DNA of 64,000 nucleotides from Tubiluchus corallicola (taxonomy: Eukaryota; Priapulida; Priapulimorpha; Priapulimorphida; Tubiluchidae): the NCBI GenBank assembly GCA_030141605.1, contig JAQGDQ010000218.1, positions 1 to 64,000 of the forward strand, read 5' to 3'. This document shows positions 35,401-38,400 of the stretch, piece after piece (the stretch's first letter is position 1; every line of letters starts with the position of its first letter). A program made the position numbers and the translations under genes. Under the pieces are notes generated by a model. The model was not told where the DNA came from. It worked only from the letters and a program-made list of their open reading frames with translations, and made no database searches.

Positions 35401-38400
35401 GAGGATAGCAATACATGTGTGGACGTGTTCACAAGTACAAGAAAAAGTGTCAGTTATTAATAATGATGTTATTGTGGGTAGTAACGTTGCCAAAAAGTTA
35501 TAGCAGGATGATTAGTGCCACGTACAAATTCTGTTGCTGTAGGTAATACTTTCGTCAGCGCGTCATTGAGAATTTGAAGGAGCCGCTATGAACGCATCAG
35601 TTATCATGAGCTTTCTAGGGTCACACCGACCACCATATCGAACACGTAGTTGTCTGGTTTTAAGGATGCTGGCAGTTTTGTTAGAAATAAATCGGTGAAG
35701 TTTTTTCAGCAAGTTTCATGTTTGCTAACCACGAATTTAATCTTTGTAAGCAAGAGTAAATGCATGATTTTTATTTCCATGGCTTCTAAGAAAGAAGTCA
35801 GACAAAAGGAAGCCAAGTCTAGCAAGGAGTCAAACATGAAGCCGTCCCTTGGCACTCAAAAGTTACCTACGAAAGTGCCAAATGTGAAACCCTCGAGCAG
35901 TCAGAAGTTATTGACCAAGCAGTCTAGTTCAAAGTTTAAAGAACCGAGTACATTAACAAATGGGCCTGCTAAAGCAGTACTAGGTGAAGTGCCTAAAGAT
36001 GATGCAAATTCTTTGGAGGATTCATTGCCATCAGACAACACTAAACAGGAAAATGTGAAGGTGCTACCTAAAATTAACACCAATGTCCGGAGAGAGCGAT
36101 CTGGGAGTCGATCATCGGTGATCTCCGACACTTCTAAATCCAGCAACGACAGCGGTCGAGCATCGTTGTATGGAAGGTGCTGTCTTGTCTGTGATTCTCA
36201 GTTCCGTTTATCTGGAAAGAAAGGCTACAGTATCTTTGATACAAATCAAGACATAAACAATCCTGTTGTGCACAATTTAACCGAACGCCTGACAAAAATA
36301 CTTGGTGTCAGTGTAACGCCAAGTAGTATTTGGACAGATAAAATATGCATGCAGTGTGCATGGCAACTAGCGAAGATGCAGTCACTAGCAAAAAATATTG
36401 CTGACTTTCGGACTAGTTTCATGAGTTCAGCTGAAAAAGAGGGAATAGAAAGAGATACGTTAAAACTTGATATCAATATAACAGAAGATGATATTTTGAA
36501 GGAGTACTGTCTCGCTGATGATAAGGCATGTTTTATTTATATTTTTGTCTTACACTTATTTCATTTCTGGTTTTCAGCTATAGGTGGCACACCAAATGTG
36601 TATGTACAAAAAACCTGCGTATGGAATTTTTATTATAATTACATAAATTTTTCCTAACTTAATTTGAAAAACTAATGATTATTGTAAGTTATTGTATGTA
36701 GGCCTTAATGTTATTGTCTTAACAAGATTTCTTGAGTAGAGCCATCAATTCAAATTTTCATATAAAATTTAAAATGAATTTCTGATGAATTGAATGTTAC
36801 TGTCAGTTTTGGTTTTAATACAATGCCTTGCAATAGTGAAATTTTTTACACTGAAGACATTGTTGGCATTTAAGTCAATATTGTTTTCTGCAAATTCTAA
36901 AACAACTTCTTATTGTAAACTCAATACTGAGTGGTAAATGTATACTTGGCACACTACTGTACATCTTTCTTAAATTACATGTACTGCCTTCACCTGACGT
37001 TTATTTATTGATTTTTTTACCTATGACATATTGTGTATTGTATGGGCTGGATGAGTAACTCACTTGGGGCAATATGACAGATGTGTTTTAAACAATTTAT
37101 GCAAGGCTACAATAGCTACAGTTGTTCATTTGCTAGTAGGGATATGGTTGATGATCATGGTGGTGTTTTGATTCTTGGAGTTTTGATGGATATTGTGCAG
37201 TTTTTAGATGTAAACTCACTGTTATATTTCAGCAGAGTGCTTTGTGTGCAATCATACTTGTGTTTATTTTCATAGTTCACTTATTTATCTTTAGTTGCCA
37301 ATGTAAAATTTTGTGATTTTCGTCAATGAAGGTGACAGTTTGCTAATTTTCTGAAGAGGTGGAAAAGTAAATTAGTCATTCAACTTCTCAAATAATACAA
37401 ACTGTTATTTTGGTCTTGTGCTAGTATTTTAGCAGTAATTAGTTTCCTTTTTTTGCTTAGCTTCAGAGTGCTACTGAGGCGCTAGCTTCTCGTTTGGAGA
37501 ACACAGAGAAGCATCTCCGCATGACGGAGGAGGATCATAGCCAGGATCTAGAGAGTGCCCTATTACGTCTTGAAGAAGAGCAACAGAGGTAAATATATCA
37601 AGTTAAGTGAGATGCTGGTTCTCCTAGTTTGTGTTATTAGCCCAATAATGTGACTTTATATAATAAGTATAGATGTTTAATTTTTTAGCCTTTAGCGAGT
37701 TATTAGAGAAATAAATGGTTATTATTAAAAGTTTCAACAAAAGCATTTTGTTACTTTGTAACTGTTAGCCTTCATGTTTTGTAGAGCATTTTTATTTAAT
37801 AAAATGAATAAAAGTTGAAGCTTATGAATTTACCTCGAAATCATGCTTCAGTAGTGTTATAATTAAGCCTGCTGTGGCCTTTTAAGATTTCTACTAAGGT
37901 TTGCAGACAAGTCTAATTTGGCAATGACTAGCTGGATCAATGGAACAAATTACCTGCAATTTAATTATTCGTATTTGAACAAAATTATGTACACGAGATA
38001 GAAAGCAACTGTGTTATCTGACGAGGCATCGTAGTGAACGATTATACACTTGGGAACATAGGATTGTTTTAGGCCAGTGGAGGCACAGTTGAAAAAAGCC
38101 ATTGTTCATCAGTGATTTTGTAATAAGCACCAACTTTGTGTTTAAGTTTGTCATTACTTTTTTATTTTTTTAAATATGAACCATTTTGATTGTATTCTTA
38201 ATTATATGATTTAGTGGTTTCTACACGATTATCTATTTCTGCAGATTTTTGTCGTGTTTCCCTACTCGAATTTCATGTTTCGTGAAGCTGTTTAGTTTTA
38301 ATGTAGTTTGTTTTACTGAGTCTCAGCAATGTAACAACTATTGCAACTATTACATCGATGACAGCATTGCAAAATGAGTAATCAGATTTGACAAAATGAA

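What the first reader, a model, noticed from the sequence alone, without database searches (positions are those of the whole stretch)
35650..36530. ZAD-like zinc-binding domain encoded inside a rootletin intron, in phase with the next rootletin exon
The frame encodes about 130 basic/Ser-rich residues and then C-x2-C, 51 residues, C-x2-C with an ICMQCAWQL context like the zf-AD (ZAD) dimerisation domain. ZAD normally heads C2H2 zinc-finger transcription factors; here the only downstream coding sequence I can see on this strand is rootletin coiled coil. The frame stops being protein-like at AAG/GC, phase 0, and the next acceptor (37461) is phase 0. That would make a ZAD-coiled-coil fusion, which I do not know to be described. 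The family match and the splice are inferences.
Basis: partly seen in the sequence, partly recalled or inferred. Interest (0 to 1): 0.78.

Follow-up and report, generated by a model that had tools for sequence, protein, structure and literature searches.

The report
Zinc-domain exon inside rootletin gene
Inside an intron of an animal's rootletin gene (a protein that anchors cilia) lies what looks like a genuine protein-coding exon with a zinc-finger-associated-like domain, perhaps an alternative start that gives rootletin a new zinc-binding head, but RNA evidence is still needed.

Summary
In the rootletin intron 30010-37460 the best + strand coding segment is 35782-36528 (44.3 bits; 100 Markov controls reached at most 14.8), i.e. 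from the ATG at 35779 to the proposed GC donor after 36525. The 249-residue product has C135-x2-C138-x51-C190-x2-C193 and a weak zf-AD match: 17.8 bits whole, 20.4 bits (E 6.2e-4) for the domain alone, below Pfam's cut-off of 28. None of 24 shuffles with cysteines fixed matched zf-AD. I call it ZAD-like, not a certified ZAD. The GC donor scores inside the range of 16 donors of my rootletin model. The best-scoring acceptor in 36560-37480 is rootletin's own, 37461, phase 0. No C2H2 finger was recognised up to contig position 104000. A CpG-rich patch, 35541-35660, looks promoter-like. Best reading, at even odds: an alternative first exon giving a ZAD-like-headed rootletin without its usual N-terminus. 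Main rival: a separate gene nested in the intron. No RNA was available, and no relative was found in the collections searched.

The parts
35541..35660 (+). CpG-rich patch, candidate promoter of the exon
   Evidence: 35540-35649: 8 CpG in 110 bases, observed/expected 1.35 against 0.49 for the window; 0.5% of 110-base windows reach 8; one of 8 such clusters in the window. No coding segment above the null there (best 9.5 bits, 35553-35588)
35710..35778 (+). possible 5' UTR; a weak acceptor-like site (gttttttcag) ends at 35709, in phase 0 with the frame
   Evidence: acceptor score 5.8 against 9.2-13.4 for 14 of the 15 acceptors in my model; frame 35650-35778 scores -0.24 bits per codon
35779..36525 (+). 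coding exon, 249 residues, from ATG to donor
36178..36408 (+). ZAD-like four-cysteine domain (residues 134-210)
   Evidence: Pfam zf-AD 17.8 bits whole product, 20.4 bits domain alone; 0 of 24 cysteine-fixed shuffles match
36526..36531 (+). GC-type 5' splice site AAG|gcatgt, phase 0
   Evidence: scores 9.5 as if GT, inside 7.1-11.9 of 16 model donors; 8 of 2330 GC sites on the + strand reach it, itself included; GT sites in 36400-36700 score at most 3.7
37461..37588 (+). rootletin exon LQSATEALAS...EEEQQ, proposed next exon, acceptor phase 0
   Evidence: best-scoring acceptor in 36560-37480 (12.0; 11.6); Rootletin Pfam match
29926..30009 (+). canonical upstream rootletin exon VNTYKKRC...RIQ, phase 0 at both ends
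28764..29015 (+). rootletin exon LETALKFDNG...LQQK
38518..38683 (+). rootletin exon after 37461-37588

Best explanation
35779-36525 is the coding first exon of an alternative, internally promoted rootletin transcript. It encodes a basic, serine-rich stretch of about 130 residues and a ZAD-like four-cysteine zinc domain. Through a GC donor it is spliced in phase 0 to rootletin exon 37461. The protein would replace the N-terminal part of rootletin, up to VNTYKKRC...RIQ, by a zinc-bound dimerising head and keep Rootletin-domain positions 38-187 and the rod. Inferred mechanism: the ZAD-like head pairs with another such head. The known ZAD crystal dimer is antiparallel, whereas rootletin is modelled as parallel dimers, so the head could either cap one coiled coil or join two rootletin filaments end to end. 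Shown here: coding status, domain resemblance, splice-site quality, phase. Inferred: the transcript, zinc binding, dimerisation, role at rootlets.
For: The coding segment ends at the GC donor. Donor quality: 8 of 2330 GC sites on the + strand reach it, itself included. 37461 is the best-scoring acceptor in 36560-37480 and serves rootletin in any case. The phase-0 join is open and keeps Rootletin positions 38-187, 158.8 bits. No + strand coding segment of 9 bits or more lies in 36529-37460; no AATAAA or ATTAAA there; no C2H2 finger recognised in the window apart from low-complexity matches, nor in 64001-104000. CpG patch upstream. ZAD antiparallel dimer and cysteine pairs about 50 residues apart: passages of PMC5509000. 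Rootletin parallel dimers (hypothetical assembly model; parallel crystal structure of the R3 region): passages of PMC8435291.
Against: No RNA seen. GC donors are rare (recalled). Other acceptor-like sites (36578, score 9.9; 36702, 9.0) would end the frame after 1 or 6 residues. Phase agreement alone is about a 1 in 3 chance. Two single-sequence AlphaFold models were of low confidence (mean pLDDT 62.2 and 59.2), disagree about the first cysteine pair, and gave no PDB fold match at E up to 0.001. phmmer found no ZAD in the PDB. The zf-AD score is below Pfam's cut-off and in a whole-genome search its E is 0.21. No relative was found in the collections searched, so conservation is untested.
Confidence: 0.5

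Rival explanations
1. A separate small gene nested in the rootletin intron on the same strand, coding a ZAD-like-only protein of about 250-255 residues that ends in a short last exon (for example at 36578 or 36702) with its own 3' UTR.
For: Acceptor-like sites at 36578 (9.9) and 36702 (9.0) give stops after 1 and 6 residues. A CpG-rich promoter-like patch fits an independent gene equally well. Variant poly(A) signals exist at 36642, 36761, 36773, 36817, 37325, 37366 and 37394.
Against: No AATAAA or ATTAAA on the + strand in 36526-37460; the whole intron has 13 in 7451 bases, so about 1.6 would be expected and none is not very unlikely. An intron to 36578 would be only 52 bases. The best-scoring acceptor is rootletin's.
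Confidence: 0.35
2. An internal cassette exon of rootletin, 35710-36525, phase 0 at both ends, inserting 272 residues between VNTYKKRC...RIQ and LQSATEALAS.
For: A phase-0 acceptor-like site ends at 35709 and the frame is open through to 36525.
Against: That acceptor is weak (5.8); the 35650-35778 frame is not protein-like (-0.24 bits per codon); an ATG begins the coding segment; CpG patch upstream.
Confidence: 0.06
3. A gene relic or retained fragment that is no longer expressed.
For: Single copy, no relative found, and no RNA evidence.
Against: No stop in 335 codons in 33% G+C DNA, coding bias, four cysteines and a good donor kept.
Confidence: 0.06

Closest known systems
ZAD (zf-AD, PF07776) of insect ZAD-C2H2 transcription factors and vertebrate Zfp276/ZNF276
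   Same: Two C-x2-C pairs about 50 residues apart; second pair followed by a predicted long helix (low confidence); near-full-length profile match (1-68 of 75)
   Different: Score below the curated cut-off; domain at residues 134-210 rather than at the very N-terminus; no C2H2 fingers recognised downstream
Rootletin (CROCC; PF15035)
   Same: Host gene, with Rootletin domain match at 207.3 bits on the canonical splice
   Different: The proposed product would replace the N-terminal part by a ZAD-like head; no paper holding both 'rootletin' and 'zf-AD' or 'rootletin' and 'ZAD' is in the held library

Membership tests
zf-AD (ZAD) domain | two cysteine pairs C-x2-C about 50 residues apart | tested here: met
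   C135-x2-C138-x51-C190-x2-C193; spacing described in PMC5509000 passages
zf-AD (ZAD) domain | Pfam curated score of 28 bits | tested here: not met
   17.8 bits whole product, 20.4 bits domain alone, 20.1 in the genome search, 15.7 in the hypothetical fusion
zf-AD (ZAD) domain | sequence resemblance beyond the cysteines | tested here: met
   E 6.2e-4; 0 of 24 cysteine-fixed shuffles listed zf-AD at E up to 10, though HMMER's filters drop most matches above about 0.1
zf-AD (ZAD) domain | globule around zinc plus long C-terminal helix 2 | tested here: inconclusive
   88-residue model: strands 5-7 and 22-24, helices 11-15, 26-29, 33-46 and 58-85, mean pLDDT 59.2. The 126-residue model instead puts a helix (3-21) through the first cysteine pair, with a long helix 66-97, mean pLDDT 62.2. 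No PDB fold match at E up to 0.001
zf-AD (ZAD) domain | zinc binding and dimerisation | not testable with these tools
   needs purified protein
ZAD-C2H2 transcription factor | C-terminal C2H2 zinc fingers | tested here: not met
   pattern scan of the window gave only three overlapping low-complexity matches at 45047-45069, and none in contig positions 64001-104000; fingers split by introns or further away would be missed
Rootletin (host gene) | Pfam Rootletin domain | tested here: met
   207.3 bits, positions 1-187 of 188
ZAD-like-headed rootletin isoform | transcript joining 36525 to 37461 | not testable with these tools
   no RNA data on hand

The most novel reading that the evidence does not exclude
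An internal promoter makes a rootletin with a ZAD-like head in a non-arthropod animal. Because the known ZAD dimer is antiparallel, the head joins rootletin filaments N-terminus to N-terminus, a zinc-dependent bipolar connector in rootlets or centrosome linkers.
Probability: 0.2. Interest if true: 0.75.

Novelty: new variant of a known kind. Interest (0 to 1): 0.5.

Why it matters
ZADs are described as dimerisation or protein-interaction heads of C2H2 transcription factors (passages of PMC5509000, and PMC7655104). A ZAD-like head on a cytoskeletal coiled-coil protein would show the domain outside transcription and would give rootlets a zinc-dependent assembly point. It would also mean an internal promoter in a rootletin gene, which I do not know to be described (recalled; searches found nothing).

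Tried and rejected
ZAD-C2H2 gene with fingers further along: no C2H2 pattern on either strand in contig positions 64001-104000; rootletin-like coding segments run to about 78525.

Transposon origin: the 2561-base stretch 34900-37460 has one match in the assembly, itself, at E up to 0.001 (that search skips simple repeats), and the protein has one match, itself, at E up to 10.

Other ZADs in the genome: 11 candidates scored at E up to 10, 0 of 11 over the cut-off; ours is second (20.1 bits, E 0.21) and the best (20.4 bits, C1737) carries a stop. I translated the other ten; four of them lie on the minus strand and were there read on the wrong strand, so I reread those four on the right one. By eye none of the ten shows both cysteine pairs in one stop-free frame. 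C96:9518-9634 (18.7 bits) covers half the profile; in 20000 of the contig's 30783 bases I recognised no partner exon. So on a whole-genome search the zf-AD score alone is not significant; the case rests on its combination with the coding evidence.

Species: cytochrome oxidase 1, cuticle protein Chitin_bind_4, Haemocyan_bet_s and trematode TES each gave no match at E up to 0.001. Chitin_bind_4 had 0 candidates, which argues against an arthropod, though the tool warns that no control genome rang. The 18S search and a telomere pattern did not complete.

Structure: two AlphaFold jobs of low confidence; two Foldseek searches with no match at E up to 0.001. VIA-align was not available. NCBIfam gave nothing. 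Rfam gave nothing in the window at gathering scores.

Splice-site matrices came from my own gene model (15 acceptors; 15 donors, 16). Several sites are unverified (acceptor 53188 scores only 5.9). One wrong acceptor (38537) was replaced by 38518, so scores differ slightly between the two. The codon model was trained on genes of the same window, the rootletin part of it coiled coil.

Paper searches that gave nothing used here: (listings seen).

Full report
What is in the sequence. The window holds an animal rootletin gene on the + strand. Joining 28764-29015, 29926-30009, 37461-37588, 38518-38683 and 39102 onward gives a Pfam Rootletin match over positions 1-187 of 188 at 207.3 bits. The ordinary gene therefore splices 30009 to 37461 and does not need the exon in question. 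On the contig, coiled-coil coding segments run on to about 78525. In the intron 30010-37460 lies a frame open from 35650 to 36657.

Is it coding. I scored codons against this window's own genes and introns. The best + strand segment of the intron is 35782-36528 with 44.3 bits; 100 Markov introns reached at most 14.8. The next non-overlapping + strand segment is 14.5 bits at 33761-33811, close to the null maximum. On the - strand a shadow of the exon scores 21.4 bits (36197-36087). The signal begins at the ATG (35779) and stops at AAG|gcatgt; both flanks score negative. The training genes were from the same window and the rootletin part of them is coiled coil, so absolute values are rough. The ZAD-like part itself scores about zero (-0.04 bits per codon), while the N-terminal part (+0.25) and the tail (+0.36) carry the signal.

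The domain. Residues 134-210 match zf-AD weakly: 17.8 bits (E 0.0039) in the whole product and 20.4 bits (E 6.2e-4) for the 85-residue stretch; the curated cut-off is 28. Shuffling every residue except the five cysteines of that stretch gave 0 of 24 matches to zf-AD. It is the only stop-free CxxC-x40-60-CxxC of the window in six frames. Against: a whole-genome search gives E 0.21, although none of the ten other candidates showed both cysteine pairs in one stop-free frame. The structure models were poor and disagree, and no PDB ZAD was found by sequence or fold. I therefore call it ZAD-like.

Splicing. AAG|gcatgt scores 9.5 as if it were GT, inside 7.1-11.9 of 16 model donors; 8 of 2330 GC sites on the + strand do as well, itself included. 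GT sites in 36400-36700 score at most 3.7. Among acceptors in 36560-37480, 37461 is best (12.0); rescored it has 11.6, followed by 36578 (9.9), 36702 (9.0), 37276 (8.1) and 37233 (7.1). In phase 0 the sites 36578, 36702 and 37276 end after 1, 6 and 17 residues; 37233 gives 27 mostly hydrophobic residues. The join to 37461 keeps Rootletin positions 38-187 (158.8 bits).

Start. A CpG-rich patch (35541-35660) lies about 120-240 bases before the ATG. It is one of 8 such clusters in the window. Of the other seven, two fall in the exons at 20289 and 39102, one in this exon, one at the 5' end of the fucosyltransferase frame, and three (1481, 4531, 46081) I did not explain. The patch favours a promoter and a first exon over a cassette exon, but does not separate a fusion from a nested gene.

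Organism. Not named. Chitin_bind_4 found 0 candidates in 343.5 Mb and no zf-AD reached the cut-off. Insects have large ZAD sets (91 ZAD-ZNF genes in D. melanogaster, PMC7655104 passages). Both suggest a non-arthropod, but the tool warns that no control genome rang, and it searches exon by exon. Vertebrates have one ZAD gene, Zfp276 (PMC8887482 passages).

Relatives. None found: own genome, GTDB genomes, IMG/VR, plasmids. The collections hold prokaryotes, viruses and plasmids, where an animal exon is not expected, so this says nothing about conservation.

Literature. Searches for rootletin with zf-AD, rootletin with ZAD and PF07776 with coiled-coil found 0 papers each in the held library, which lacks most subscription journals. 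The papers cited were seen in passages only.

Verdict. The exon looks genuinely coding and its ZAD likeness goes beyond its cysteines. A ZAD-like-headed rootletin is the most economical reading, at about even odds; a nested gene is the main rival.

Noticed in passing
window 5582-6031 +: Last exon of a small GTPase (Pfam Ras, 99.6 bits), Rab9-like by recall.
   Followed up: no
window 7537-8895 -: Frame of 452 codons matching GDP-fucose protein O-fucosyltransferase (164.2 bits), with a CpG-rich 5' end.
   Followed up: no
window 16833-17834 +: Short-chain dehydrogenase frame of 333 codons (adh_short, 123 bits).
   Followed up: no
window 10301-11400 -: Reverse-transcriptase-like fragments of a non-LTR element (resemblance recalled).
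   Followed up: no
window 43444-43635 +: Repeat that reads as poly-asparagine in one frame.
   Followed up: no
L020-L021 (contig C96): Half-length ZAD-like match (18.7 bits) in a contig rich in tandem repeats; no partner exon recognised in 20000 of 30783 bases.
   Followed up: partly
L025 (contig C2125 about 84.9-91 kb): LTR-retrotransposon-like frames downstream of rootletin.
   Followed up: no
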